From: Fulvivirga marina
GTDB lineage: Bacteria > Bacteroidota > Bacteroidia > Cytophagales > Cyclobacteriaceae
Assembly: GCF_016775155.1 (NCBI RefSeq)
Contig: NZ_JAEUGD010000003.1
Span: 1-50,679, forward strand
Length of the DNA: 50,679 nucleotides
Direction of reading: 5' to 3'
Position 1 is the first letter of the stretch, and each line of letters starts with the position of its first letter. Under the pieces are notes generated by a model that saw only the letters and a program-made list of their open reading frames with translations, did not search any database and was not told where the DNA came from. Below are positions 1,624-50,679 of the stretch, piece after piece. A program made the translations under genes and the position numbers.

Positions 1624-2784
1624 TTAATCTACAACAGATTCTTCATCCTTACTACCTTTGTCAAAGTTGAAAAGGAGTGTGAATCGAAGCGTTTCAGCTA
1701 ACGGATGCTCCTGTTCTTTAGGTACTAGGTAGGCAAAGTCAATTCCGAAAACCTGATATCTGAAGCCTAGCCCTAGGGTCAGATATTTTCTGTTTCCTTT
1801 ATCCTCCGATTCGAAGAAATAGCCTACACGAGCAGCAAATGTATTGTTGTACCAATATTCAGCTCCTGCAGAAACGGTTACTTCTTTCAACTCTTCACTA
1901 AATCCGTCTTCGGCATCACCAAATGAACCAAACATACCACTCAAAAGCGATTTGTCACTTTGGGCTGAGTCCAGCTGAGGGCTTGGTACCATTAATTTAT
2001 TGAGATCAACACCAAAAGTCAACTTGTTATACGGATCTAGGTTAGTGGTGAATGCACCCCCTAATCTAAGATTAGTTGGGATAAAATCTTTATTGCTTTC
2101 GTCAGAGTAAGTAAGCTTAGAGCCAATATTAGAGATTACTGCAGCCAGAGCCAGATTAGAATTGCTTCCACTTAACAGCAAGTCTTTATCATAGAAAACT
2201 GCAATATCAGCCGCGATACTATTACCTGGCTTTGCTTCTACACCACCTGAAGAAAAGCTTCCTGTGAGGTTTGAATGAATATATCTACCGGCAACACCGA
2301 TACTTAGGTTTTGCGTTAACATTCTTGAATATGCTGCATCGAATGAAAACTCTCTAGGATTAAACTGACCTTCGTCACCACCTTGCTCATTGGTGAAAAA
2401 TATTTCACCCAAATCAAAGTAGCGCATAGACATGGCTACAGCCTGTTCTTTTGAAAATTTGTAATAACCAGATAGGTAAGTAATAGACATGTCATTTATA
2501 ATTTTACCTAGCCATGGTGTATAGGAAAGGGAGAACCCTATATTATTTTCAATAAAAACAAGTTTTGCAGGGTTCCAGTATATGGAGTTCGCATCAGGGG
2601 ACGTAGCTGCTCCGACATCCGCCATCCCTCCGGCGCGAGCGTCAGGTGTAATGGTGAGAAAAGGAACTGCTGTGGTAATTACTCTTCTCGAAGAATCTTG
2701 ACCGACAATACCCTGAGCTTGAGATGTATAACCTGTTAATACTGATAAAATGACCGCCGAGACGAGCGTAAATAACCTTTTCAT
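1624..2784 (-). CDS. porV: Type IX secretion outer-membrane protein PorV (LptO)
   Basis: A FadL-like outer-membrane beta-barrel of the PorV family, which shuttles type IX cargo from the translocon to the PorU sortase. The mature N-terminus has the family-typical ITTAVPFLTITPDARAGGMA followed by DVGAATSPDANSIYWNPAKL; the rest is alternating strands with many glycines and aromatics. I place the start at 2784 because the resulting MKRLFTLVSAVILSVLTG is a good signal peptide ending before TSQAQG; an upstream in-frame ATG at 2805 would add seven residues. It follows porU closely (27 nt, or 6 nt with the upstream start) and precedes the M16 gene by 3 nt, so these are co-transcribed. Confidence 0.93.
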   Translation of the reverse strand: MKRLFTLVSAVILSVLTGYTSQAQGIVGQDSSRRVITTAVPFLTITPDARAGGMADVGAATSPDANSIYWNPAKLVFIENNIGFSLSYTPWLGKIINDMSITYLSGYYKFSKEQAVAMSMRYFDLGEIFFTNEQGGDEGQFNPREFSFDAAYSRMLTQNLSIGVAGRYIHSNLTGSFSSGGVEAKPGNSIAADIAVFYDKDLLLSGSNSNLALAAVISNIGSKLTYSDESNKDFIPTNLRLGGAFTTNLDPYNKLTFGVDLNKLMVPSPQLDSAQSDKSLLSGMFGSFGDAEDGFSEELKEVTVSAGAEYWYNNTFAARVGYFFESEDKGNRKYLTLGLGFRYQVFGIDFAYLVPKEQEHPLAETLRFTLLFNFDKGSKDEESVVD

Positions 2785-2811
2785 GTGACTTCTGTTAGCA
2801 AACAAATATAA

Positions 2812-5800
2812 TTAATTAATAAGAATAAGCTTTTCATATCCTTGATTTTTTCCCCCATCCGACATAGAACGTACCATGATCTTAAATAAGTATATTCCTC
2901 CCGGAACTTTTTGTCCAAAGATATTTGTGCCGTCCCAATTGAAAAGCTCTATATCTGATGTACTTCCTTGTATCTCAAAACTCATGTCTCTTAATATTTC
3001 ACCTGATCTGGAGATTATCTGGAGATTGACCTGAAGATCTTCGCCGGATCGGCTATGCTCAAAAGCAATGGTAGTATTGCTGGAAAAAGGGTTGGGGAAA
3101 GCCCTTAAATTCGATAACGAAATGCTCCCTTCCTCACCTACAACGAATTCGATTTCACTTTTGCCTGGGTTGTTGTAGGTATCCCAGGCCTTTAGTGTTA
3201 GTGTATGTTTCCCTTTTTCTAGGTTATTAAGTGGAAAGGAAACCCATCCGGTTTTGTAGGTGTTTTGAGAAGCTATATAATATTCATTAAGGTTATAAAC
3301 GTTTTTGTCATCCAATATGGCAGTGATATTGTTTCCGACTCCGTATCCTGAAATATTAATGCCACTTTCATCTGATAGCCTAGCAACCAACATCGTATTA
3401 GGGTTGACTTCTCCGGTGCCTCGGTATGTGCTATCTCCCAGATACAGTTGAATATTAGGTCCCGTATTATCCTGAGGTGGGTTTATAGCCGTACCTCCCA
3501 CAACAATTTCTATATCAGAGCCATTTGCATCGTCATTTTGAGTTTTTTGGAATGCGTATAAACTGATCTTACCTGTTCCTGCTTGGTAAGAAATATTTTT
3601 AGGTACAACAAATTCGACGGTAAATTCTCCATTACTAATCGTTGATGTTCCTCTGAAAATGACATTTTTACGAGACTTGTACGTATAAGGGGTGTTTTCC
3701 TGGCCAAGTGTTACGAACTCAGACTCCTTATCATAAATGACGGTCTCTAAGGTTCCGTTAAATTCGGTGCTTTTTAAACCATCCACTTCCTGGATTTCTC
3801 CTTGGATTTTAACTTTACTTAAAGCTTTAAGCGTATCTGATTTATTCGCGTTGCCGTTAATTGACGTTAACACAACTTTCTTTTTTGGATAGCTGAGCCT
3901 TAGGGAGGGATCCCCTAGCAAACCAAAGTTTCTGTTTCCTACTTTATTGGCATCAATGGCTTTGTCCACGCTATTATTTTTTGTGATCCTTATAATATCA
4001 CCAAGTCTTGGGTATTGGTCATCCGTGATTCTAAACAACTCGTTATAGAAGGCTTTATTCAAAGCAAAATTAGAGCTTGAAAATACAGGTCTACAAGTAC
4101 TTATAATGCCAATACCTCCTCCTTTAGAATTGGTTACTAGCTTTTCTCCTCCTGAGATCAGAGTTGGGTCATCATGTCGACCAAACTCACAAGTGGCGGT
4201 AACAAATAGAGGGAGCCTTTTAATGTTATCCCATTTTCTTATCATTACAGTATCCAATATTTCTTCTTCGGTCCAGCCGACTTCTCTTCCGTGCCCTGTA
4301 AAATTTATTACCAATGCGCCTTTACTCACTAATTTGGTTAGTGCTTCTTTAGCTTTAGGTGAGGTCTGTTTGCTAGGGGTGGAGATTTGAGGATAAGCGT
4401 CCAAAAAGAACTTATTGTAATTGAAGTCTGAAAATGCAGTATCGATCAATACTGTTAATTGATCCGATTGTGATGTGTGCGTATTGGCGTCTCCATCATC
4501 AGCCACAAATGCTATATCATTTCGCCAATGTCCCAAAGCTTCTGGGTCGGTGCTATAACTTATAAGCTTATCTACCACTGTTTTAGCCTGTTTTAGGCTG
4601 GTAACTGGTAATCGTCCGACTCCTATTTCCATAGTATGGTTGCCTCCCGACTTCTCTTGCCATTCACCTTCATCTGATTCCATAAAACCAAAATAGTCAT
4701 CTGAGGTATAGGTGTCTAGCGGGTATAGAGAGTTTCTTGATTCATATACAGGAACATAATTGTTGTTCTTTTGTAGAATATTTTTATAATCGTAGGAGCC
4801 TCTTCCAAATAACAAAAGGTATTTAAGCCTGTTGGTTTTGCCGTATAAGTATTTGGTATAATCTCTAATGGCTGTGACATCCTGTTTGCCACTTGAAAAC
4901 TCGTTATAGACTTGTTCCGTTGTTACTACTGCTACGCTAAGGTTATCATTAGACCTTCTGAATTGTGCCAGCCTTTTGGCTTCAGGTAAAAAGTTTGGGT
5001 GAGTTACTATTAGTAAATCAGGAGTACTGATCCCTCGAATATTTTGATTAGGAATCTTTATAATTTCCGGGGTGAGCAGTTTGGCCGGATCGAAAGCTAT
5101 AAACTCCTTTATCGCAGATGTTTCAGTTCCAAAAGAAGCTTTACCCTGATTAAAAGTAAATGGCTGGTTTTTAGCAGCTAAGGGATCTGATATATCCCAA
5201 ATCATAGTTTGTGCTGTAGCATCAGAAATTTCAAAAGTACTGCTAGTGTTGTTGCTGCTTTCAGTTGATCTGAATATGGTCATGCTCTGGGTTAACTTGA
5301 GATGACATTTAGCCTCTATGATAAGGTAATCAAGGAAACCAGCAGCATACCCGGAGCTGTTTCCTATATACTCCAGTTTAACCGCAAGATTGCCACTTCC
5401 AATATCATTTGAATTAAGCATAAACTGACTCAAATCCTCATTGCCTTTAACACTATATAAATATTGCTTTTTGTTAAAGTCAGGAATGCTTCCTATAATT
5501 TGTTCTCCTGCAGCAATATCATTAAGAGTCAGCTTGAATTTAGATTCAGCAAAAGACTGGGCCATTACTGCTGATGTAACTGTAACAGTGGTATTTGGAA
5601 TAAGTCCATCTATTTTGAAATTATAGGTTTGTATCCCGGGATTGCTTTCATACCATTTCCGTCCAGAGCCAAGAATGTTCTTCTCATCTACCTCATGGTA
5701 CCTAAAAGTGTTGTAACTCTGTATTTTAGGGAAACTTGTACCTAGGTTGGAACCGCTGGATATTCTTAGGCCGTTATCGGTACCGATCGTTAGAAAATAA

Positions 5801-6216
5801 TAATTCTGGTTAGAGTAAATATTATGCTGGTAGTTTAAAATACCTCCTTCATAGCTATATGAATCGGCTCCCTGAGCATATATGAGTATATAATCACCGT
5901 TGTCGAACTTTCCATCATTTTCCCCACTAATGTATATGGCATTTTGTGTCAGATCGGCAGGTCTTTCTATGCTGTTTGCTTGAGGGAGCATTCCGGAACC
6001 ATTTCCATAGACCTGGATTTTTCTTGGGTCAATGCTGGCTACATCAATGCCCATTTCCTGCAATTTACTGTGGGTGATTTTATAAACTCCATCTTTTTCA
6101 ATAGTTAGCTTGAACCAGTCACCCGAGGATAAAACCGAATTATCCTGGCTGATAGCAGCTTGTGAAAAAGTGAATAAATAAAACAGAATAATTATGACTC
6201 GTAAATTTCGGGTCAT
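2812..6216 (-). CDS. porU: Type IX secretion system sortase PorU
   Basis: An 1134-residue gingipain-like (C25) cysteine protease acting as the cell-surface sortase that removes the C-terminal domain of type IX cargo. A signal peptide (about 1-23, ending ISQ) leads into a long beta-rich N-terminal region and then the C25 domain with catalytic His642 (NFTGHGREVGW) and Cys676 (TATCEFGRHDDP). An Ig-like region and a terminal FlgD/CTD-like fold (NLRAFPNPF near 1040) follow. It sits upstream of porV in the same operon and 66 nt after pssA. Length matches family members. The catalytic residues are intact, so it should be active. The secreted VCBS protein at 14447 is a probable substrate. Confidence 0.95.
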   Translation of the reverse strand: MTRNLRVIIILFYLFTFSQAAISQDNSVLSSGDWFKLTIEKDGVYKITHSKLQEMGIDVASIDPRKIQVYGNGSGMLPQANSIERPADLTQNAIYISGENDGKFDNGDYILIYAQGADSYSYEGGILNYQHNIYSNQNYYFLTIGTDNGLRISSGSNLGTSFPKIQSYNTFRYHEVDEKNILGSGRKWYESNPGIQTYNFKIDGLIPNTTVTVTSAVMAQSFAESKFKLTLNDIAAGEQIIGSIPDFNKKQYLYSVKGNEDLSQFMLNSNDIGSGNLAVKLEYIGNSSGYAAGFLDYLIIEAKCHLKLTQSMTIFRSTESSNNTSSTFEISDATAQTMIWDISDPLAAKNQPFTFNQGKASFGTETSAIKEFIAFDPAKLLTPEIIKIPNQNIRGISTPDLLIVTHPNFLPEAKRLAQFRRSNDNLSVAVVTTEQVYNEFSSGKQDVTAIRDYTKYLYGKTNRLKYLLLFGRGSYDYKNILQKNNNYVPVYESRNSLYPLDTYTSDDYFGFMESDEGEWQEKSGGNHTMEIGVGRLPVTSLKQAKTVVDKLISYSTDPEALGHWRNDIAFVADDGDANTHTSQSDQLTVLIDTAFSDFNYNKFFLDAYPQISTPSKQTSPKAKEALTKLVSKGALVINFTGHGREVGWTEEEILDTVMIRKWDNIKRLPLFVTATCEFGRHDDPTLISGGEKLVTNSKGGGIGIISTCRPVFSSSNFALNKAFYNELFRITDDQYPRLGDIIRITKNNSVDKAIDANKVGNRNFGLLGDPSLRLSYPKKKVVLTSINGNANKSDTLKALSKVKIQGEIQEVDGLKSTEFNGTLETVIYDKESEFVTLGQENTPYTYKSRKNVIFRGTSTISNGEFTVEFVVPKNISYQAGTGKISLYAFQKTQNDDANGSDIEIVVGGTAINPPQDNTGPNIQLYLGDSTYRGTGEVNPNTMLVARLSDESGINISGYGVGNNITAILDDKNVYNLNEYYIASQNTYKTGWVSFPLNNLEKGKHTLTLKAWDTYNNPGKSEIEFVVGEEGSISLSNLRAFPNPFSSNTTIAFEHSRSGEDLQVNLQIISRSGEILRDMSFEIQGSTSDIELFNWDGTNIFGQKVPGGIYLFKIMVRSMSDGGKNQGYEKLILIN

Positions 6217-14446: not shown

Positions 14447-16675
14447 ATGAAAACCCTTTATGCTTTTACGCTCATTTTTTGTACATCTTTTTCGATTTCC
14501 AAAGCACAGTTTGTTTATACACTTGACCAATCAATCCCCGTGGAAAAGAAAGGTGTTACGTTAAGTATGCCCTGGACTGGTGGGCTGAATAGTATTCAAT
14601 ACAGTACAATAGACCTTAACCATGATGGTATTGAAGATCTTGTAGCTTTTGATAGAAGTGCTCATAAAGTTTACCCCTTTCTCGCTGTGGATAAGGCGTA
14701 TGCCTATGCTCCTGAATACGCCTTCTACTTTCCTGCTGAGATAAAGAACTGGATGCTGTTAAGAGATTATAATTGTGATGGAAAGAAAGATATCTTCACT
14801 AGCCATTCTTTTGGTGTTCGTGTATTCATTAATGAGACAACTGTGAAAGGCCCTCTTAGCTGGAGAGAGTACATTACTGGTACAGATAACTCAGGAGATG
14901 ATCAGTATTTTCTGAAAACCAAAGGCTTTACTTCCAATATCAACATGCAAATGAATTCGTCTGATATTCCTGCAATTGTTGATATAGATGGAGACTCTGA
15001 CCTTGATATCTTGATGTTTCGAGCCAGTGGCACATCCACAGTTGAGTTTCATAAAAATCTGAGTATTGAAAGGGACGGGAATTGTGATTCCCTGCAATAC
15101 GAACGCATTACACAAACATGGGGGAATTTTCAGGAATGTCAGTGTGGAGAGTTTGCCTTTAACGGGAATGATTGTGCAACCTCAGGGGGAAGGGAGGAGC
15201 ATCAGGGCGGTAAGTCAATACTATTGCTCGATAATGATAGTGATGGAGATTACGATGTGTTAATCTCAGAGGAAACTTGTGGTAACCTTTTCATTATGGA
15301 AAATACAGGAACCAATGAATCACCTTCCTTTAATTCAGCCAGTGCTGGTTTTCCTAATAGCAGTGATCCAGCTACAATGTTATTTTTTCCAGTAGGTTAT
15401 TATGAAGATGCAGACTTTGATGGAGTAAGGGATATGTTGGTTTCGCCAAATGTTGCAAATAATGTATCTAACTCGGTAAACTTTGAGTCGTCAAGCTGGT
15501 TTTATAAAAATATAGGAACAGACAATAACCCACAATTTGAACTTAAAAATCGTAATTTTCTGCAGGATCAGACCATAGATCTTGGAGAAAATGCATCACC
15601 AGCCTTTGGTGATTATGATGGTGATGGTGACTTAGATATGATTTTGGGAAGTTATACTAACCAGGGGGCTCCGGGGTTTAATGCCACTCTTTTACTTTAT
15701 GAAAACACTGGCTCGGTTAATGAACCTTCATATGTACTTAAAAGTGAAGATTACCTGCAACTTTCATTGTCAACGGTGTTTAATCTTAAACCAAAATTTC
15801 GTGATGTTAATGGGGATAACCGTGTCGATTTGGTATTTAGTGCAACTGAACTCTATAATTTCTCCACTAATGTTTACTACATATTGAACCGAGGTGAAGG
15901 GAAGTTTAACTTTGAAGAAGAGATACGTGTCTTATTTTCAAATATCGGTTTTGATGAGAACTTTGAGACCTATGACATCAGTGGAGATGGTTTGACGGAC
16001 ATACTCATAGGAAAGAGTACCGGAAAATTAGAATACTATGTTAATGTTGGAACGATAAATGCCCCGGTATTCAATTTGGAGGATGATACATTTTATGGGC
16101 TTAATTTTAGTACGTCGAGGTTGGATTTGAGTGTTACCATAGCTGATATTAATAGTGATGGTAACGCTGATATGATTGTTGGAGATAAACGGGGGAGTCT
16201 GACAATATATGATAATTTTCTTGCCCATGTTGAACAACCTGAGAATGGAATTACTGATTTTGTCTGGTCTTCAAATGAAGAGGTATCGACTTTTAATTTT
16301 GGAGGTAAACTGTATCCAGCAGTGGCTAACCTTTTTAATGAAGATAAACCCAGCCTGATTATAGGGACGGGGCAGGGAGGTTTACACCTATTGAGAAATT
16401 CAGATGCACTGGCTGGGTATGTCAACAGGTTTGATCTAGATATTTTTCCCAACCCGGTATTTAGTTCCTCCATGAAATACATTAATGTAAGCTCTAAGAC
16501 TTCTGGTAATGCTACCATAATTTCCCTTCTTGGACAACAAGTGACAGACAGTTTTTATTTGCCTGCAAACACGGTGAAACCCATTTCGGTGGCAGGACTT
16601 AATCCGGGTATGTATATTGTTATCCTGTCTGCTGGGAATGAATATATACATCAACGGTTTATAGTTGTTGAATAA
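14447..16675 (+). CDS. Secreted VCBS/FG-GAP repeat protein with type IX C-terminal domain
   Basis: A 742-residue secreted protein. A signal peptide (about 1-20, ending SKAQ) is followed by at least eight Asp-rich VCBS/FG-GAP calcium-binding loops, for example DLNHDGIEDLVAF, DIDGDSDLDILMF, DYDGDGDLDMILG and DINSDGNADMIVG, which should fold into a beta-propeller. The last about 75 residues are a type A sorting domain: FPNPVFSSS, then GQQV, GLNPGMYIVIL and a terminal FIVVE. That makes it a likely cargo of the type IX system whose PorU and PorV are encoded at the left of the window. Adhesion or ligand binding at the cell surface is the likely role; the ligand is unknown. Confidence 0.88.
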   Translation: MKTLYAFTLIFCTSFSISKAQFVYTLDQSIPVEKKGVTLSMPWTGGLNSIQYSTIDLNHDGIEDLVAFDRSAHKVYPFLAVDKAYAYAPEYAFYFPAEIKNWMLLRDYNCDGKKDIFTSHSFGVRVFINETTVKGPLSWREYITGTDNSGDDQYFLKTKGFTSNINMQMNSSDIPAIVDIDGDSDLDILMFRASGTSTVEFHKNLSIERDGNCDSLQYERITQTWGNFQECQCGEFAFNGNDCATSGGREEHQGGKSILLLDNDSDGDYDVLISEETCGNLFIMENTGTNESPSFNSASAGFPNSSDPATMLFFPVGYYEDADFDGVRDMLVSPNVANNVSNSVNFESSSWFYKNIGTDNNPQFELKNRNFLQDQTIDLGENASPAFGDYDGDGDLDMILGSYTNQGAPGFNATLLLYENTGSVNEPSYVLKSEDYLQLSLSTVFNLKPKFRDVNGDNRVDLVFSATELYNFSTNVYYILNRGEGKFNFEEEIRVLFSNIGFDENFETYDISGDGLTDILIGKSTGKLEYYVNVGTINAPVFNLEDDTFYGLNFSTSRLDLSVTIADINSDGNADMIVGDKRGSLTIYDNFLAHVEQPENGITDFVWSSNEEVSTFNFGGKLYPAVANLFNEDKPSLIIGTGQGGLHLLRNSDALAGYVNRFDLDIFPNPVFSSSMKYINVSSKTSGNATIISLLGQQVTDSFYLPANTVKPISVAGLNPGMYIVILSAGNEYIHQRFIVVE

Positions 16676-16676
16676 G

Positions 16677-17054
16677 GTGTACTTGTTTCTTCATATCAGG
16701 ATTACAAAGGATCAGTTCATTTTTAAGAATGATTCAATAGACAACTTAAGGGTTTGGTTGCCTCATGTTACATTATTTGACTTAGATAACTATTCAGATA
16801 CTACAACCATACAAACAGCAATTAAAGCTATGGATATAGCTGAAAAGGTATTTATACAGATTGAAGCAGAGGAAGGACCAGAGCTGGGAGGGGCTTTAAA
16901 GGTTTTAAATCAAGTTATTAAAAAAACTTCGGCTGTTATTGATTATCAAGGAAGTCATGAGACCTTGAATAAAATAATGATGCGTTTCAAAGATAAACAA
17001 CTTGGTCAGGGCCTGTCGTTGCAGGAAAAAGTTCAGGAATTTTTCAGTGATTGA
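16677..17054 (+). CDS. Small conserved-looking protein of unknown function
   Basis: A cytoplasmic protein of about 125 residues with no signal peptide or membrane segment. I do not recognise a family. The start is uncertain: GTG at 16677 lies just after the stop of the VCBS gene, and TTG codons at 16665 and 16668 are alternatives; there is no ATG. Its 3' end overlaps the convergent nitrilase gene by 11 nt. Mixed alpha/beta composition (VFIQIEAEEGPELGGALKVL) looks like real coding sequence, and tight packing behind the VCBS gene supports co-transcription. Confidence 0.6.
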   Translation: MYLFLHIRITKDQFIFKNDSIDNLRVWLPHVTLFDLDNYSDTTTIQTAIKAMDIAEKVFIQIEAEEGPELGGALKVLNQVIKKTSAVIDYQGSHETLNKIMMRFKDKQLGQGLSLQEKVQEFFSD

Positions 17055-17841
17055 TGGTAAAGTGGTCGGCATCCATATAAGCAGGAAATTTTTCTCTAAG
17101 GCCAGTGACGTCAGCGGGGTTCAGAGTAACTGTATGTATCTCCTCTCTGTCATCTGCTGCATAAAGTGCGTCACCTTTGGGCGTAATAATGGCTGAGTGA
17201 CCGTTGTACCCTACCTGATTACCATCTTTACCAATTCGGTTAATACCAATTGTGTAGCTGAGGTTTTCTATGGACCTGGCTTTTAAAAGAATGTCCCAGG
17301 CATTGACTCTGGCAGCAGGCCAGTTTGCAATATAGATTGCAAGGTCATAACTCATTTGGTTACTTTCACCTTCCGGAAAATTTCTGCTCCATACAGGGAA
17401 ACGTAGATCGTAGCAAATCAAAGGACAGATGCGCCACCCTTTCAAAGTTTCTATCAATCGCTCTTTTCCTGGAGAGTAGTGTTCATGCTCATTGGCCATT
17501 CTAAACAGGTGTCTTTTGTCATAAGAGCTGTATTGTCCATCTGGTTTCATCCAGACTAGCCTATTATAGTATTTACCACCTTCTTTAGCAATGAAGCTAC
17601 CGCAAATTACAGCTTTGGTTTGTTCAGCCATTTGCTTCATCCACTTAAATACCTTGTAGTTCATGGGTTCGGCAAGTTCTTCTGCCTGCATGGAGAAACC
17701 GGTGCTGAACATTTCTGGCAGTATAATCAAATCGGTAGATTCATCGATCTGCCAAATCTTTTCTTCAAACATCGCAAGGTTCGCGTCTGAATTCTGCCAG
17801 TAAAGTGGCGATTGAATTAATGTTACCTTTAAATTCTGCAT
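17044..17841 (-). CDS. Nitrilase-family omega-amidase-like hydrolase
   Basis: A 265-residue carbon-nitrogen hydrolase with the complete nitrilase triad E43 (LPEMFSTGFS), K109 (YDKRHLFRM) and C143 (LICYDLRFP). The YDKRHLF and ICYDLRFP forms match the YafV/Nit2-type omega-amidases, which hydrolyse 2-oxoglutaramate or 2-oxosuccinamate. Its start overlaps the end of the methionine aminotransferase gene by 13 nt. Transaminase plus omega-amidase is the known pairing that salvages 2-oxo acids of methionine using glutamine, with the amidase making the reaction irreversible. Substrate is inferred from family and neighbour. Confidence 0.85.
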   Translation of the reverse strand: MQNLKVTLIQSPLYWQNSDANLAMFEEKIWQIDESTDLIILPEMFSTGFSMQAEELAEPMNYKVFKWMKQMAEQTKAVICGSFIAKEGGKYYNRLVWMKPDGQYSSYDKRHLFRMANEHEHYSPGKERLIETLKGWRICPLICYDLRFPVWSRNFPEGESNQMSYDLAIYIANWPAARVNAWDILLKARSIENLSYTIGINRIGKDGNQVGYNGHSAIITPKGDALYAADDREEIHTVTLNPADVTGLREKFPAYMDADHFTINH

Positions 17842-18977
17842 AATATCTTAGCAGCTTTTTCTATGGTTTCTTCATTTTTTGCAAAGCAGAATCTTAATAT
17901 CTTATCATCCCTACGATTTTTATAAAAAGCTGAAATAGGTATAGAGGCAATGCTGTGCGTTTTTGTAAGATATTCGGCCATTTCCATGTCCGGTCGGTTA
18001 GAAATCTCTTGATATGAGAGTGATTGGAAGTAAGTACCATGACATGGTATCGGAATAAAACCAGAGTCTTTAATTTGACCCAGAAACAGGTCCCTTTTTT
18101 GCTGATAGAAGGCAGGCAATTGGGTGTAGTTACTTTCGGTTTTGAGGTATTCGGCAATAGCCAGTTGCACGGCTGTATTTACACTAAAGGTCACAAACTG
18201 GTGAACCTTTCTAATCTCAGCCATTATATCTGCAGGAGCCACTACGTAACCTACTTTCCATCCTGTGGCATGGAAAGTTTTTCCAAAAGAGAATACCGCA
18301 ATACTTTGATCTGCAAGTGCAGGATATCTAAGTACGCTGGCATGAGTAAAATTATCAAATATGATATGCTCATAAACCTCATCACTCAGAATAAGCAGAT
18401 TAGGATGTTGCATAGCTATTTTATCCAGCCGTCTCATGTCCTCACCAGTTAATATAGACCCGGTTGGGTTATGAGGTGTATTGATGATGATCATCCTTGT
18501 TTGGGAAGTGACCTTTTGCTCTACCTCATCCCAGTTAATAGAGAAGTCCGGCTGCTTGAGAGTAAGGTGCATTGGAATACCACCACTTAACCGTATGACT
18601 GGGGCATAACTGTCATATGCCGGGTCAAATAGGATAACCTCATCATCTGGGGAAATTAGTGCTGTTATCGTATTAAAAAGAGCCTCAGTAGCTCCAGAGG
18701 TAATAGTAATTTCAGTGTCAGGGTCAGCATAGTAATTAAAACGAGATTTTAGCATAACTCCTATTTGCTCTCGAAGTGCGGGAACCCCAGGCATGGGTGC
18801 ATATTGATTGAACCCATTGGACATGTATTTATTTACCAGACCGATTAGCTCTTTTGAGACTTCAAAGTCAGGGAAGCCTTGAGAGAGATTAATGGCACTA
18901 TGTTCCTGTGCCATTTTCGACATTACAGTGAAAATTGATGTGCCTACATCCGGAAGTTTTGACTTTAGTTTTGGCAT
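17829..18977 (-). CDS. Methionine aminotransferase-like PLP enzyme (class I)
   Basis: A 382-residue fold-type I aminotransferase. Key positions are visible: LSQGFPDF near the N-terminus, N170-P-T-G, D199-E-V-Y and the PLP lysine K233 in SFGKTFHATGWKVGY. The SFGKTFHATGWK form is typical of the YbdL/kynurenine aminotransferase group, whose members prefer methionine, glutamine and aromatic amino acids. It lies 1 nt after def and overlaps the omega-amidase gene, suggesting a small operon around methionine removal and salvage. Exact amino-acid preference cannot be read from the sequence. Confidence 0.87.
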   Translation of the reverse strand: MPKLKSKLPDVGTSIFTVMSKMAQEHSAINLSQGFPDFEVSKELIGLVNKYMSNGFNQYAPMPGVPALREQIGVMLKSRFNYYADPDTEITITSGATEALFNTITALISPDDEVILFDPAYDSYAPVIRLSGGIPMHLTLKQPDFSINWDEVEQKVTSQTRMIIINTPHNPTGSILTGEDMRRLDKIAMQHPNLLILSDEVYEHIIFDNFTHASVLRYPALADQSIAVFSFGKTFHATGWKVGYVVAPADIMAEIRKVHQFVTFSVNTAVQLAIAEYLKTESNYTQLPAFYQQKRDLFLGQIKDSGFIPIPCHGTYFQSLSYQEISNRPDMEMAEYLTKTHSIASIPISAFYKNRRDDKILRFCFAKNEETIEKAAKILCRI

Positions 18978-18978
18978 A

Positions 18979-19533
18979 TTATTTTTTTGCAGGAAGTACT
19001 ACCCTGTAATCCACTTTCATCTTTCCTTTAGTTATGTTTTGGAGTTTCCCTTTAAGCATTCGCTTTTTCAGGGGAGAAAGGTGATCCGTAAATAATATAC
19101 CTTCTATATGATCATATTCATGCTGAATAATCCTGGCTTTCATGCCATCATACGTTTCTTTATGTTCTACCCAGTTTTCATCAAAGTAGCGTATAGTAAG
19201 GCATTCATTTCTAAACACGTCCTCTCTGATGTTTGGAATACTCAAGCAGCCCTCTTCGAATGCCCATTCATCTCCGGTTTCTTCCAGTATTTGAGGGTTA
19301 ATGAAAACCTTTTTAAAATCTTCCATATCCTCATCTTCTATTGGGCGTCCATCGACAACGAACATCCTTAAGCTTTTTCCAATTTGAGGTGCAGCTAAGC
19401 CAATGCCACTGGCGCCTTCCATGGTTTCAAACATATCTTCACTGAGTTGCTTGACATCCAACTCATCCTTTTCTATGTCCCTTGCCTTTTTCTTCAGCAC
19501 AGGGTCTCCGTATACTACTATAGGATATATCAT
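18979..19533 (-). CDS. def: Peptide deformylase
   Basis: A 184-residue metalloenzyme that removes the formyl group from the N-terminal methionine of new proteins. All three motifs are intact: GIGLAAPQ (43-50), EGCLS with metal ligand C96, and HEYDH (138-142). It sits between ruvX, 47 nt upstream, and the aminotransferase gene, 1 nt downstream, in a minus-strand operon. Confidence 0.96.
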   Translation of the reverse strand: MIYPIVVYGDPVLKKKARDIEKDELDVKQLSEDMFETMEGASGIGLAAPQIGKSLRMFVVDGRPIEDEDMEDFKKVFINPQILEETGDEWAFEEGCLSIPNIREDVFRNECLTIRYFDENWVEHKETYDGMKARIIQHEYDHIEGILFTDHLSPLKKRMLKGKLQNITKGKMKVDYRVVLPAKK

Positions 19534-46669: not shown

Positions 46670-48649
46670 ATGCACTTTGACAGGAAGAAGTATTCCGATA
46701 AGATATTAAAAGAGCTTTATGAAGCTTTGTTGAGGCCTCGTATGATAGAAGAGAAGATGTTGATACTTCTCAGGCAGGGTAAAATAAGCAAATGGTTTTC
46801 AGGTATAGGTCAGGAGGCCATTTCCATTGGTTCTACAAAAGCTCTTGAAAGCGACGAATATATTCTTCCTATGCACCGTAATTTAGGCGTTTTTACTTCC
46901 AGAGAGGTGCCATACAGTCGTCTTTTTTCTCAATTTCAAGGGAAACTATCCGGTTTTACCAATGGCAGAGATCGCTCCTTTCACTTCGGTACCAACGATT
47001 ATAATATAGTAGGCATGATCTCTCATCTAGGCCCGCAGTTGGCCGTGGCTGATGGTATTGCATTGGCAAACCGGCTTACGAAACAGGAAAAAGCCACGCT
47101 GGTTTTTACTGGAGATGGAGGTGCTAGTGAGGGTGATTTTCATGAAGCATTAAACGTAGCTGCTGTTTGGGATCTTCCGGTTATTTTCGTTATTGAGAAC
47201 AATGGGTATGGCCTATCCACTCCAAGTAATGAGCAATTTAGGTTTAAAAGCTTCGTAGATAAAGGCCCGGGATATGGAATTGATGCAGTGAAGGTAGATG
47301 GAAATAACATACTTGAAGTTTATGATACTATTAAGCAGTTGGCCAAAAAAGTGCGTAAAAATCCCCGCCCGGTGATTGTAGAAGCAATAACTTTTAGAAT
47401 GAGAGGTCACGAGGAGGCGTCAGGAACAAAATATGTTCCTAAAGACCTGATGGAGAAGTGGGCTAAAAAAGATCCGTTAGAAAACTTTGAACAGTACCTT
47501 CTTAAAGAAGGTGTAATTACTGAAGCTGATATTAAGAAATATCGAAAGATCATTCAGGAAAATATTGATGAAGGCCTGGAACAAGCATATGCTGAAGGTA
47601 TGCCTCAGGCAACCATGGAAAAGGAGCTTTCTGATATGTACGCTCCTTATCAACAAGAGACGGTATCTCCATCAACGGATGTTAAAACCACTAAGCGATA
47701 TGTGGATGCCATTTCGGATGGATTGCGTCAAAGTCTTGAAAAATACCATGAGTTAGTTATTATGGGGCAAGACATTGCCGAATATGGCGGTGTATTTAAA
47801 ATTACAGAAGGCTTTGTTGATCAATTTGGTAAGGACAGAATCCGAAATACGCCATTATGTGAGTCTGCCATAATTGGTGTTGGACTTGGCATGTCAGTTA
47901 AAAAGCAAAAATCTGTTGTAGAGATGCAGTTTGCTGATTTTGTTACCTGCGGATTTAACCAAATAGTTAATAATCTTGCTAAATCGCACTATCGTTGGGG
48001 CCAGAATGCTGACGTAGTTGTGCGTATGCCAACAGGAGCGGGTGTTGCAGCCGGGCCTTTTCATAGTCAGTCCAATGAAGCATGGTTTTTTCATACCCCC
48101 GGCCTTAAGATAGTTTATCCTTCAAATCCTGCAGATGCTAAGGGGTTACTGTGTGCCGCTATTGAAGATCCAAACCCTGTGATTTATTTTGAACATAAAT
48201 TTTTATATAGATCACTAAGTGAGGAGATATATGATGATTATTATACTATTGAAATTGGTAAGGCAAATCTTGTAGAAGAAGGCACTGATATCTCTATAAT
48301 AACCTATGGTATGGGTGTGCATTGGGCAAAAGAAGTTATGCAAACGTTACCTGAACTTTCAGCTGATATTCTGGACCTAAGATCGTTATTGCCTTGGGAT
48401 AAAGAGGCTGTTGAGGCAACAGTGAAGAAGACAAATCGTGTGTTGATTTTGCATGAAGATTGTATGAATGGAGGAGTTGGTGGTGAAATAAGCGCCTGGA
48501 TCAGTGAAAATTGCTTCCGTCATCTTGATGCTCCTGTTTATCGTGTAGCTAGTCTGGATACAGCGGTTCCATTTTCTCCGCCGCTAGAGCAAAACTTCTT
48601 ACCCAAAGGTAGGCTAAAACAAAAAATTAAGGATTTGGCGGAATTTTAA
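46670..48649 (+). CDS. 2-oxo acid dehydrogenase E1, fused alpha-beta
   Basis: A 659-residue thiamine-diphosphate E1 enzyme in which alpha (about 1-330) and beta (about 340-659) chains are fused. The TPP motif is G148-D-G through N177-N178 (GDGGASEGDFHEALNV, IENNGYGLST). The beta part has GQDIAEYGGVFKITEG, NTPLCESAIIGVGLGM and GPFHSQSNEAWFFHTPGLK. Bacteroidota fused E1 proteins of this kind are often annotated as branched-chain 2-oxoisovalerate dehydrogenase or as a generic dehydrogenase; substrate is unproven. E2 and E3 genes are not in the window. It has a good promoter and a weak terminator. Confidence 0.9.
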   Translation: MHFDRKKYSDKILKELYEALLRPRMIEEKMLILLRQGKISKWFSGIGQEAISIGSTKALESDEYILPMHRNLGVFTSREVPYSRLFSQFQGKLSGFTNGRDRSFHFGTNDYNIVGMISHLGPQLAVADGIALANRLTKQEKATLVFTGDGGASEGDFHEALNVAAVWDLPVIFVIENNGYGLSTPSNEQFRFKSFVDKGPGYGIDAVKVDGNNILEVYDTIKQLAKKVRKNPRPVIVEAITFRMRGHEEASGTKYVPKDLMEKWAKKDPLENFEQYLLKEGVITEADIKKYRKIIQENIDEGLEQAYAEGMPQATMEKELSDMYAPYQQETVSPSTDVKTTKRYVDAISDGLRQSLEKYHELVIMGQDIAEYGGVFKITEGFVDQFGKDRIRNTPLCESAIIGVGLGMSVKKQKSVVEMQFADFVTCGFNQIVNNLAKSHYRWGQNADVVVRMPTGAGVAAGPFHSQSNEAWFFHTPGLKIVYPSNPADAKGLLCAAIEDPNPVIYFEHKFLYRSLSEEIYDDYYTIEIGKANLVEEGTDISIITYGMGVHWAKEVMQTLPELSADILDLRSLLPWDKEAVEATVKKTNRVLILHEDCMNGGVGGEISAWISENCFRHLDAPVYRVASLDTAVPFSPPLEQNFLPKGRLKQKIKDLAEF

Positions 48650-48705: not shown

Positions 48706-48734
48706 TTTGAATATCCTAAGTCAATTTAAGTTTT
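48706..48734 (+). promoter_or_regulatory. Putative promoter TTTG-N17-TAAGTTTT for the basic repeat protein
   Basis: TTTG at 48706-48709 and TAAGTTTT at 48727-48734 (one mismatch to TAnnTTTG) with 17-nt spacing; the box ends 11 nt before the ATG at 48746. Confidence 0.4.
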
Positions 48735-48745
48735 TCAAGTTTAGC

Positions 48746-50679
48746 ATGAGCTTACGACTGTTATTAGTTGGAGCGATGCTAGTGTTTGTTGTTGGTGTAG
48801 ATGCTCCCGAGGTTCAGGCTCAGCAAAAATCACAATATGAAAAAATGCAGAAGAGGCGGAACAAGAGCAATCGCCGCCTGAAAAGAAGGGGAGATAAGGG
48901 GAAGTCAAATAGAAGAAGCTTAAGGGCTACCAAATTTAAAGTACGATCTAAGCAGGGAGAGAGGGCCTACAGAGGAGATATAACGGGAAGGAAGTTCCAA
49001 AGCAAAAGATCAACACGTCCTAAATGGGGTGCGCGTGTAGCTAAGCCAAATCCCTATGCCGGTAGGAAAAGGACTAGCGAGGCCAGTAGGGCCAAGGCAT
49101 CAAAACAGACCCCAAGGTATTCTTCAAGAGAAAGAGAAAAAGCATGGAAAGGTGGTGCTGGACGAGCCAGCTTTGGTAGATCCATCCGGACAACTTTTAC
49201 AGGGAAACGTGCTTATCAGCGAGTTAAAGGTTCTGGACGTTCAGCTACTCGAGACCCTGAAAGACCAAGAAAAATAACCAGAGTATCGCCAAGATCAGCT
49301 TCTGGAGCTTACAGGATTAGAAAGCGAAAGAAACCTTATGCCATAAGAGAAAGATCAAAATGGGAAAAGGCTTTTCAGGGAGATATTACGGGGAGAAAAT
49401 TCAGAAGCAAAAGAACTACAGACAGGCCAACTATCCAGAAACCCAGAAATACAAGGTATACCAGTAAAGGGAGAAGGGGGGATAAGGCCTACAAAGGACG
49501 TATACAGGCAGGTTACCAATCTGCCAGTCGAACAAAAGAAAAGGCATGGAAGAAAGATATTTCAGGAAATAAGCTTAGGGTTCGTACTTCAGGTCAGCCA
49601 AAGTTCAATGATTCTCATTTTCAAAGCTATCCTAAAGGAAAAAGACAAGGCGATAAAGCTTACAAGGGTAAAATGAAGGGGGGGGGATTTAAGTCCATAA
49701 GCTCCAGAAAGGAAAAAGCTGGAAGAAGATCACTTTCATCAAGGCCTCCAGGGGATGGTACACGTAGGGCATGGAAGTTTCAGGGAAATATCAAGTCGGG
49801 CAAACCGCTAAAGGGCGGAGGTAGTGTAAGTGGTAGAAAGTGGAACAATAAGGGGAGAGCGGTGCAAGGCCGTGGCCTGAGAGACCAGGATAATCGAGTG
49901 GCCAGGTTTCAGGGGAATGTTAAAGGAGGTAGGCGCTTGAAGGGTGGTGGAAGTATTAGCGGTAAAAGATGGAATAACAATGGAAAATCAATTCAAGGCC
50001 GTGGCCCGAGAGATCAGGATAGCCGTGTAGCAAAGTTTCATGGAAATATTAAGGGTGGTAAACCATTGAAAGGTGGTGGAAGCATTAGCGGAAAGCGCTG
50101 GAATAACAAGGGGAAGTCTATTCAGGGTAGAGATCCAAGGGAGCAGGATAATCGAGTAGCCAGGTTTCAGGGAAATATTAAAGGAGGTAAACCTTTAAAG
50201 GGTGGTGGAAGTATTAGTGGTAAAAGGTGGAATAATAAGGGGCGGTCCATTCAGGGTAGAGGTCCAAGGGAGCAGGATAATCGAGTAGCCAGGTTTCAGG
50301 GAAATATTAATGGAGGTAAACCTTTTAAGGGTGGCGGAAGTATTAGTGGTAATAGGTGGAATAATAAGGGGCGGTCTATTCAGGGTAGAGGCCCAAGGGA
50401 GCAGGATAATCGAGTAGCCAGTTTTCAGGGAAATATAAAAGGAGGTAAACCTTTAAAGGGTGGCGGAAGTATTAGTGGTAAAAGGTGGAATAATAAGGGG
50501 CGGTCTATTCAGGGTAGAGGCCCAAGGGAGCAGGATAATCGAGTAGCCAGATTTCAGGGTAATATCAAGGGAGGCAAGCCTCTGAAAGGTGGAGGTAGCA
50601 TAAGCAGGTCTGGTTGGAACAATAAAGGTAAGCCCGTACAGGGCCGAGAACCTAAAGGTCAGGATAGCAGAATTGCAAA
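48746..50679 (+). CDS. Secreted, highly basic tandem-repeat protein (partial, runs off window)
   Basis: An open frame of 644 complete codons with no stop before the window edge. It starts MSLRLLLVGAMLVFVVG and has a signal peptide to about residue 26 (EVQAQ, signal peptidase I type; no lipobox). Residues about 27-340 are rich in Lys/Arg with an irregular motif (D/E)KA-aromatic-(K/Q)G-x-I-x-G-(R/K)K, for example GERAYRGDITGRKF, EKAFQGDITGRKF and DKAYKGRI. From about residue 342 seven 43-residue repeats follow (VARFQGNIKGGKPLKGGGSI, then SGKRWNNKGRSIQGRGPREQ, DNR). One repeat has 11 Lys/Arg against 2 Asp/Glu and 10 Gly. Cysteine is absent from what I read. I do not recognise a family. It should be exported; role unknown. 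Polyanion binding, extracellular DNA or polysaccharide matrix, or a self-assembling fibre are possibilities only. Confidence 0.85.
   Translation, partial: MSLRLLLVGAMLVFVVGVDAPEVQAQQKSQYEKMQKRRNKSNRRLKRRGDKGKSNRRSLRATKFKVRSKQGERAYRGDITGRKFQSKRSTRPKWGARVAKPNPYAGRKRTSEASRAKASKQTPRYSSREREKAWKGGAGRASFGRSIRTTFTGKRAYQRVKGSGRSATRDPERPRKITRVSPRSASGAYRIRKRKKPYAIRERSKWEKAFQGDITGRKFRSKRTTDRPTIQKPRNTRYTSKGRRGDKAYKGRIQAGYQSASRTKEKAWKKDISGNKLRVRTSGQPKFNDSHFQSYPKGKRQGDKAYKGKMKGGGFKSISSRKEKAGRRSLSSRPPGDGTRRAWKFQGNIKSGKPLKGGGSVSGRKWNNKGRAVQGRGLRDQDNRVARFQGNVKGGRRLKGGGSISGKRWNNNGKSIQGRGPRDQDSRVAKFHGNIKGGKPLKGGGSISGKRWNNKGKSIQGRDPREQDNRVARFQGNIKGGKPLKGGGSISGKRWNNKGRSIQGRGPREQDNRVARFQGNINGGKPFKGGGSISGNRWNNKGRSIQGRGPREQDNRVASFQGNIKGGKPLKGGGSISGKRWNNKGRSIQGRGPREQDNRVARFQGNIKGGKPLKGGGSISRSGWNNKGKPVQGREPKGQDSRIA
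49769..50671 (+). repeat. 129-bp tandem repeats, seven copies
   Basis: Copies begin at 49769, 49898, 50027, 50156, 50285, 50414 and 50543, all exactly 129 bp (43 codons), so no frameshift. Copies 4 and 6 differ at five of 129 positions by my count, while copy 1 and copy 7 are more diverged. The array appears to continue past the window edge. Confidence 0.9.

What the first reader, a model, noticed from the sequence alone, without database searches (positions are those of the whole stretch)
48746..50679. Secreted, very basic protein of 43-residue repeats, no recognised family
An exported protein has a signal peptide, no cysteine seen, and strong positive charge (about +9 per 43-residue repeat by my count). 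Its irregular N-terminal half already carries the core pattern (KA-aromatic-x-G-x-I-x-G-x-K), so the regular repeats seem to have grown from it. The exact 129-bp period and near-identical middle copies point to recent expansion. A polycationic secreted repeat protein in a gliding or biofilm-forming phylum could bind DNA, LPS or acidic polysaccharide, or assemble into fibres.
Basis: partly seen in the sequence, partly recalled or inferred. Interest (0 to 1): 0.75.

Follow-up and report, generated by a model that had tools for sequence, protein, structure and literature searches.

The report
Cytophagales secreted polycation with conserved tail
The odd repeat protein at the window's edge belongs to an apparently undescribed family of exported, cysteine-free, strongly positive and probably unfolded bacterial proteins that usually sit in one gene slot, keep one C-terminal tail and keep replacing the repeats in front of it; what it binds is unknown.

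Summary
In detail: seven 43-residue (129-bp) units of +6 to +9 each in a cysteine-free protein of pI about 12. Corrections: the start is more likely a conserved TTG at 48707, and the window ends at a one-base scaffold gap, beyond which the frame stays open to a stop, with no type IX sorting domain; a bacilliredoxin gene (BrxC) follows.

It is one member of a family. A ~110-residue tail profile matches 73 of 291 genomes of the order (63 at E<=1e-5; 17 of the 73 supplied profile rows) and, in a 296-genome phylum sample, only 4 genomes, all in the order. In 26 loci, fused PDH E1 lies upstream in 24 and BrxC directly downstream in 20. Among 47 members the part before the tail falls into 13 clusters without blastp links, with periods of 17-71 residues. 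No cysteine in 45 of 45 mature parts; charge-hydropathy and AlphaFold2 suggest disorder. Outside the window's family a small basic lipoprotein is usually encoded upstream (19 of 23 loci read). No Pfam, NCBIfam or PDB family fits.

Best guess: a periplasmic disordered polycation that docks by its tail and holds anionic envelope polymer by charge (0.4). Gliding or T9SS cargo is not supported, though not excluded.

The parts
48707..50679 (+). Open reading frame of the polycation, cut by the window end (scaffold gap at C23:50680; far-side piece C23:50683-51513)
   Evidence: TTG start column invariant in 8 of 8 Fulvivirga-type genes
48707..48820 (+). Signal peptide ending ...EVQA, mature N-terminus Gln at 48821 (Q-rule); site inferred from pattern, no signal-peptide predictor was run
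48821..49777 (+). Irregular N-terminal half carrying the core motif [KR]A-aromatic-x-G-x-I-x-G-x-K; strong purifying selection (from the TTG to 49777: 84.6% identity to F. kasyanovii L037, dN 0.089, synonymous sites near saturation)
49778..50679 (+). Seven tandem 129-bp / 43-residue units (starts 49778, 49907, 50036, 50165, 50294, 50423, 50552), the last cut by the gap; copies 4-6 recently duplicated
46670..48649 (+). Pyruvate dehydrogenase E1 alpha-beta fusion, the usual upstream neighbour (same strand, within five genes, in 24 of 26 loci; directly adjacent in 15)

Best explanation
SHOWN: the gene is one member of a family, found here only within one order (Cytophagales by the record titles), of basic, low-complexity proteins with an export signal by pattern and no cysteine in the mature part. 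The C-terminal tail and, in most loci, the gene slot (fused PDH E1 - polycation - BrxC) are conserved, while the repeat region is replaced between genera but stays basic. INFERRED: it is exported by Sec, cut by signal peptidase I and, lacking a type IX sorting domain, stays in the periplasm or on the inner face of the outer membrane as an unfolded polycation. The tail docks on a fixed partner; the long repeat region binds anionic envelope polymer (peptidoglycan or acidic lipid/polysaccharide) by charge, as an adjustable-length electrostatic tether or coat. In most of the other families a small basic lipoprotein encoded upstream is the likely partner. Family identity I hold at about 0.9; the stated confidence refers to the tether/coat mechanism.
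For: Tail profile: 73 of 291 order genomes at E<=0.01, 63 at E<=1e-5; 17 of the 73 supplied rows of the profile. Synteny: PDH upstream in 24 of 26 loci, BrxC next in 20 of 26, one genome being counted twice as L042/L053; polycation stop to BrxC start estimated at 1-10 nt in 14 of 18 loci of the window's type. Repeats replaced: 13 core clusters, 41 of 47 members periodic beyond all 100 shuffles, periods 17-71. No Cys in 45 of 45 mature parts, net +6 to +24 per 100 residues. Export-type site before Gln by pattern in 44 of 47. Disordered side of the charge-hydropathy plot in 47 of 47; AlphaFold2 730 of 796 residues below pLDDT 50, with a helix in the tail. Purifying selection on N-half and C-terminal piece. 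Small basic lipoprotein upstream in 19 of 23 loci read outside the window's family (judged by eye), and found by profile in the same slot in 4 of 5 f13 genomes that were not in the alignment (E 6e-9, 1.8e-6, 6.4e-4 and 0.0022).
Against: No partner or location was measured. The tail around its helix differs between the Fulvivirga type (hydrophobic...KLLWSKIFKKN) and the distant type (basic...KYRKRMLKKYGR), so 'same partner' is a guess. The lipoprotein is not in the slot in the window genome (57 nt between PDH and the gene) and only weak, partial matches occur elsewhere in the window's family. Low pLDDT may partly reflect a 9-sequence alignment. The protein could leave the cell by a route not recognised here. 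Tight spacing to BrxC, a thiol enzyme, is not explained by a tether. Most genomes of the order (218 of 291) give no tail match, so the function is dispensable or met otherwise; in three of four g6 genomes that lack the gene, a different basic exported protein lies beside BrxC on the other strand.
Confidence: 0.4

Rival explanations
1. Cell-surface or matrix polycation: the protein is released outside and binds extracellular DNA or acidic exopolysaccharide in biofilms or on algal surfaces.
For: Strong positive charge and repeats; related species come from algae and decaying wood and degrade polysaccharides (PMC10113389, listing and start of abstract).
Against: No type IX sorting domain in either piece, which T9SS cargo needs (PMC11285876, start of abstract); no lipobox in its own signal peptide; the gene lies beside housekeeping genes, not in an adhesin or polysaccharide locus.
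Confidence: 0.2
2. Accessory of gliding motility or type IX secretion (for example a charged periplasmic or surface track component).
Against: GldB and PorP/SprF present in 42 of 42 same-family genomes regardless of the gene; GldJ-model matches in 280 of 291 order genomes (none over the cut-off, GldK cross-hits likely) against 73 for the tail; no PorP among the neighbours scanned.
Confidence: 0.12
3. Stress protein tied to thiol redox: a cysteine-free exported polycation made together with BrxC, e.g. a sacrificial or protective coat under oxidant or metal stress.
For: BrxC start estimated 1-10 nt from the stop in 14 of 18 loci; an OsmC-like gene, on the other strand, is two genes down in 14 of 26 loci; zero Cys in 45 of 45.
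Against: In four of four genus-g6 genomes read, PDH and BrxC remain side by side without the polycation, so BrxC does not need it; no known mechanism.
Confidence: 0.1
4. Precursor cut into cationic antimicrobial or signal peptides, one per repeat.
For: Near-identical cationic units in tandem.
Against: Only copies 4-6 are near-identical and in 6 of 47 members no periodicity beats the shuffles; across genera the tail is kept and the unit is not.
Confidence: 0.05

Closest known systems
Lpp-type outer-membrane-to-peptidoglycan tethers (Braun lipoprotein; recalled)
   Same: Exported protein thought to bridge envelope layers; a small lysine-rich lipoprotein is encoded upstream in most loci outside the window's family.
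   Different: The polycation has no lipobox, is 154-1019 residues long when mature, looks disordered, and the lipoprotein ends in Lys in only 7 of 18 aligned sequences.
T9SS cargo with type A sorting domain (TIGR04183)
   Same: Same organisms; export signal followed by Gln; conserved C-terminus.
   Different: No TIGR04183 match in either piece; the low-confidence tail model shows helices and no strands.
Polycationic DNA-condensing proteins (histone H1-like; recalled)
   Same: Lys/Arg-rich, low-complexity, probably disordered.
   Different: Carries an export signal; aromatic-x-G-[DN]-I motifs and a W-containing tail; no Pfam match.
Curlin/amyloid repeat fibres (recalled)
   Same: Gly/Asn/Ser-rich tandem units with regularly spaced hydrophobics.
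   Different: High net charge; only one- or two-residue strand assignments in a low-confidence model; no Pfam match.

Membership tests
T9SS secreted cargo | C-terminal sorting domain (TIGR04183 or related) | tested here: not met
   No match in either piece at E<=1; the same library finds it in two nearby M4 peptidases.
T9SS secreted cargo | PorP/SprF partner next door | tested here: not met
   Upstream PDH and three downstream proteins scanned, none is PorP; neighbours in the other loci were only clustered, not scanned.
Sec/SPI exported protein of Bacteroidota (Q-rule) | Signal peptide with A-x-A-like site and Gln at +1 | tested here: met
   By pattern in 44 of 47 members, window included. The pattern requires the Gln, so this is not an unbiased prediction; it is plainly misplaced in L061 and probably in L040, and L061 and L154 were set by hand.
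Outer-membrane lipoprotein | Lipobox Cys in its own signal peptide | tested here: not met
   The window signal peptide has no Cys; the upstream protein in other families has one by eye.
Lpp-like tether | C-terminal Lys linked to peptidoglycan | tested here: not met
   Polycation ends in ...WYD; the lipoprotein ends in Lys in 7 of 18. Linkage itself not testable.
Known Pfam/NCBIfam/PDB family | Match above curated cut-off | tested here: not met
   window pieces; 24 tails; tail profile against PDB. One distant member, L061, passes the DUF7912 and Phage_Coat_A cut-offs by whole-protein score with no single stretch significant; I read this as a repeat artefact.
The new tail family | C-terminal ~110-residue tail | tested here: met
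   E 9.1e-42 at C23:51193-51510, by construction since this tail is a row of the profile; independently 83% identical to the L037 tail.
The new tail family | Slot between fused PDH E1 and BrxC | tested here: met
   Window 46670-48649 and L003:5571-5912.
The new tail family | Binding to an anionic envelope polymer | not testable with these tools
   Needs protein and cell fractions.

The most novel reading that the evidence does not exclude
Part of the Cytophagales carries its own envelope-tethering system: a fixed docking tail, in most of the other families read with a dedicated small lipoprotein, attached to a disordered polycation whose sequence is free to be reinvented as long as charge, length and absence of cysteine are kept. 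This would be a bacterial case of a protein conserved by gene position, end tag and bulk chemistry while its main body turns over completely.
Probability: 0.3. Interest if true: 0.78.

Novelty: new variant of a known kind. Interest (0 to 1): 0.6.

Why it matters
The repeats of these proteins do not align between genera, so one by one they would look like unrelated hypothetical proteins; the tail and the gene slot show that they belong together. That makes a clear experimental target, gives a natural comparison (four of four genus-g6 genomes read keep both neighbours but not this gene), and offers a test of how far a protein can change sequence while keeping charge and end tag. If it is an envelope tether, it would help explain how these bacteria hold their outer membrane.

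Tried and rejected
Type IX sorting domain and PorP neighbour: not found. Gliding/T9SS co-occurrence: GldB (37 of 42 over the cut-off) and PorP (42 of 42 over it) have matches in 42 of 42 same-family genomes; the GldJ search is uninformative (280 of 291 at E<=1e-10, 0 of 291 over the cut-off). Second copy in the own genome: only the gene itself and weak matches to its own far-side piece. Plasmid carriage: no match of the C-terminal piece at E<=1e-3. Folded repeat: AlphaFold2 on the F. kasyanovii orthologue, mean pLDDT 37.5, and on its tail, 52.7; too low for a fold search, so none was run. Literature: seven searches aimed at such a protein and two on context; I saw listings and starts of abstracts only, opened no paper, and found no description; most subscription journals are not held. 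Weak family hits (Glyco_hydro_11, acylphosphatase, single members of others) taken as chance. The end-motif expression (44 of 47) was written after seeing the sequences and is descriptive only. Ten of the 73 tail matches have E above 1e-5 and may include chance; one (G244) is confirmed by its slot; G178 has weak matches on two contigs. Of 18 further PDH-downstream stretches from other families, four f13 stretches hold a short basic protein, one f15 stretch (G047) a 255-residue basic protein with tail E 1.3e-4, two are too short to judge, and the other eleven show no member. Rows dropped: L053 (same genome as L042) and L043 (truncated) from the 47; L057 and L148 from the cysteine count because the mature start could not be placed; L148 and L151 from the lipoprotein reading; L154 (cut by the contig end) from alignment A5.

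Full report
WHAT IS IN THE WINDOW. Seven 43-residue units begin at 49778 and run to the window end; each carries +6 to +9. The protein has no cysteine and a computed pI of 12.0 over 618 residues after the signal region. The window ends because the scaffold has a single N at G000:C23:50680; the 61 bases after it equal the last 61 bases of the window. On the far side the frame is open and continues the last unit, then irregular YQGNIK-type units, then a distinct tail ending PRYDKKEQDIWYD. The genome holds no second copy. The host is taken as a Fulvivirga or near relative because the nearest named orthologue, from F. kasyanovii, is 82% identical over the aligned window piece; the genome itself is unnamed.

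START. In an alignment of eight Fulvivirga-type genes the TTG at 48707-48709 is invariant and in frame, while the ATG is seen in two. Eleven of 26 rows with a readable start have no ATG ahead of the signal-peptide cleavage region, so a non-ATG start is common in this family. My start listing takes the first possible start in frame and so leans to upstream TTGs; the invariant column is the stronger evidence.

SELECTION AND HISTORY. Against the F. kasyanovii orthologue (L037) the irregular N-terminal half is 84.6% identical with dN 0.089 and synonymous change near saturation (corrected dS 2.2); the C-terminal piece has dN 0.10 with saturated synonymous sites. Within the window copies 4-6 are 95-96% identical in DNA and 95% to each other against 79-80% to the best copy of seven other species: a recent, local duplication. 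Copies 1, 2 and 7 are old. Copy numbers counted by GGGS[IV][SA] in eight Fulvivirga-type genes are 7 (up to the gap), 6, 4, 6, 5, 7, 3 and 4.

FAMILY. A search with the C-terminal piece found 18 of 291 order genomes and nine named loci, including F. kasyanovii, F. imtechensis and Chryseotalea. A profile of 24 tails then matched 73 of 291 genomes of the order at E<=0.01, in 44 of 115 genera; 63 of these are at E<=1e-5, and 17 of the 73 had supplied rows. In a sample of 296 genomes of the phylum 4 matched, all in the order; the listing, which runs by kinship, shows 12 genomes from the order, so about 284 lie outside it and none matched (inferred from the listing). Extra matches in a genome fall in the same reading frame or beside it in the listed rows, except G178 with weak matches on two contigs. 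I read 48 member loci (26); two of the latter have tail E near 1e-4 (L157, L158), as has L145. Apart from the tail they share little: the regions before the tail fall into 13 clusters at blastp E<=1e-6 among 47 members, 41 of 47 are periodic beyond every one of 100 shuffles, and the best period in those ranges from 17 to 71 residues. Examples are PRYSAGSPFxKKDKxV, DKRLAEIDKMNRK, SRSKGPKNDGSKVRVRE and the Fulvivirga unit. All are basic, and none has cysteine in the mature part (45 of 45 assessed).

GENE SLOT. In 24 of 26 loci the fused PDH E1 gene lies upstream on the same strand (15 directly adjacent); in 20 of 26 BrxC is the next gene; in 18 of 26 a ~243-residue protein of no known family follows; L042 and L053 are one genome. 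In the 22 further loci, several of them short stretches or contig ends and two (L129, L138) fetched only downstream of PDH, PDH was seen in 9 and BrxC in 11. In 18 loci of the window's type, the distance from the stop to the BrxC start, estimated from the aligned BrxC, is 1-10 nt in 14, 111 in L037, -19 in L057, and two have no BrxC there; in the window genome it is 57 nt. In four of four genus-g6 genomes read (G256, G132, G119, G181; two more g6 genomes were not read) PDH and BrxC stand side by side and the gene is missing. In three of these four a different basic exported protein (162-175 residues, ending in a W-rich stretch) lies beyond BrxC on the other strand, which could be unrelated or a substitute. 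In 11 further same-family genomes without a tail match I saw neither BrxC nor such a gene within about 4.2 kb after PDH, by reading the frames; of the 24 genomes with PDH I fetched 20, one of them only 400 bases.

A SECOND GENE. In 19 of 23 member loci read outside the window's family (25 were held; L148 and L151 were not read), a small basic lipoprotein (68-117 residues; lipobox Cys by eye, then CP, then G-[LI]-x-x-[KSR]) is encoded upstream, in all but L139 as the next gene. It was not seen in L143, L144, L145 and L157. Its profile also finds the slot lipoprotein in 4 of 5 f13 genomes that were not in the alignment, two of them only weakly (E 6.4e-4 and 0.0022), where place is the main evidence. 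Those genomes look Hymenobacter-like to me; they are unnamed. All five have, instead of the long polycation, a 112-157-residue basic exported protein just before BrxC with no significant tail match. The window's family lacks the lipoprotein in the slot as far as read, and only weak partial matches occur elsewhere. Pairing of the two proteins is inferred from position only.

EXPORT AND STATE. In 44 of 47 members a pattern for a signal-peptidase-I-like site followed by Gln matches near the N-terminus, plainly misplaced in L061 and probably in L040; this fits the Bacteroidetes Q-rule (PMC5837995 and PMC10653852, starts of abstracts seen). There is no type IX sorting domain, while two M4 peptidases about 8-14 kb downstream have one. 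All 47 fall on the disordered side of the charge-hydropathy plot. AlphaFold2 on the F. kasyanovii mature protein with 9 sequences gave mean pLDDT 37.5, 730 of 796 residues under 50, with a helix at 748-768 in the tail; the tail alone gave 52.7 with a helix at 105-122. A shallow alignment can also lower pLDDT.

HOW IT MAY WORK. What stays constant is the exported, cysteine-free, basic body and the tail; what varies freely is the body's sequence. That is the expected pattern if the body works through charge and length and the tail through a specific contact. Without a recognised route across the outer membrane, the simplest place is the periplasm, where peptidoglycan and acidic membrane components are the anionic targets, and an outer-membrane lipoprotein would be a natural tail partner. 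I commit to this at 0.4; location, target and partner are all untested. The alternatives (extracellular matrix, gliding, thiol stress, peptide precursor) are listed with tests. Presence or absence gave no support for gliding or T9SS, though PorP/SprF match counts average 10.5 in the 15 same-family genomes with the tail and 7.0 in the 27 without, by my averaging.

NOVELTY. No Pfam, NCBIfam or PDB family fits the window protein or the tails; one distant member passes two Pfam cut-offs in a way that looks like a repeat artefact. Seven literature searches aimed at such a protein found no description. As a family it appears undescribed; as a kind of thing, exported disordered polycations and envelope tethers are known in general (recalled), so I rate it a new variant of a known kind and put the bolder reading in the novel case.

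Noticed in passing
window 1624-2805 (-) and 2812-6216 (-): Adjacent T9SS genes: PorV (NF033710, E 1.4e-151) and the sortase PorU (NF033707, 1342.6 bits) in one window with the repeat protein, 42 kb away.
   Followed up: partly
L149:5287-5544 (+), L059:6381-6632 (+) and 16 more (alignment A5): Small basic lipoprotein family (C...CP...G[LI]xxK) upstream of the polycation in 19 of 23 loci read outside the window's own family; five members scanned, no Pfam family at its cut-off.
   Followed up: partly
L003:6399-7130 (+): A ~243-residue protein with no Pfam or NCBIfam family at its cut-off, near the locus in 18 of 26 loci. By eye it has a signal peptide and looks like an outer-membrane barrel, and the next gene is often lipA-like or TonB-like (names by eye, not scanned).
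   Followed up: no
L003:13083-16040 (+) and 16260-19310 (+): Tandem pair of M4 thermolysin-like peptidases, both with T9SS type A sorting domains; they look like duplicates.
   Followed up: no
L177, L178, L180, L182, L125 (unnamed f13 genomes): The same gene slot holds a short basic exported protein of 112-157 residues with a shared stretch around [ST]HL by eye; may be a shrunken relative or a replacement.
   Followed up: partly
L119 ORF 502-1029, L121 514-1017, L126 507-995 (oriented coordinates): In three of four g6 genomes that lack the polycation, a basic exported protein (net +13 to +17 per 100 residues) lies beyond BrxC on the other strand.
   Followed up: no
window 48707 and relatives: A non-ATG (TTG) start appears conserved in the Fulvivirga-type genes; it could be a translation brake on a costly polycation.
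   Followed up: partly
G000:C23:50619-50741: Scaffold joins by one N between identical 61-bp ends; likely an unmerged contig overlap, so copy number in this assembly is uncertain.
   Followed up: partly
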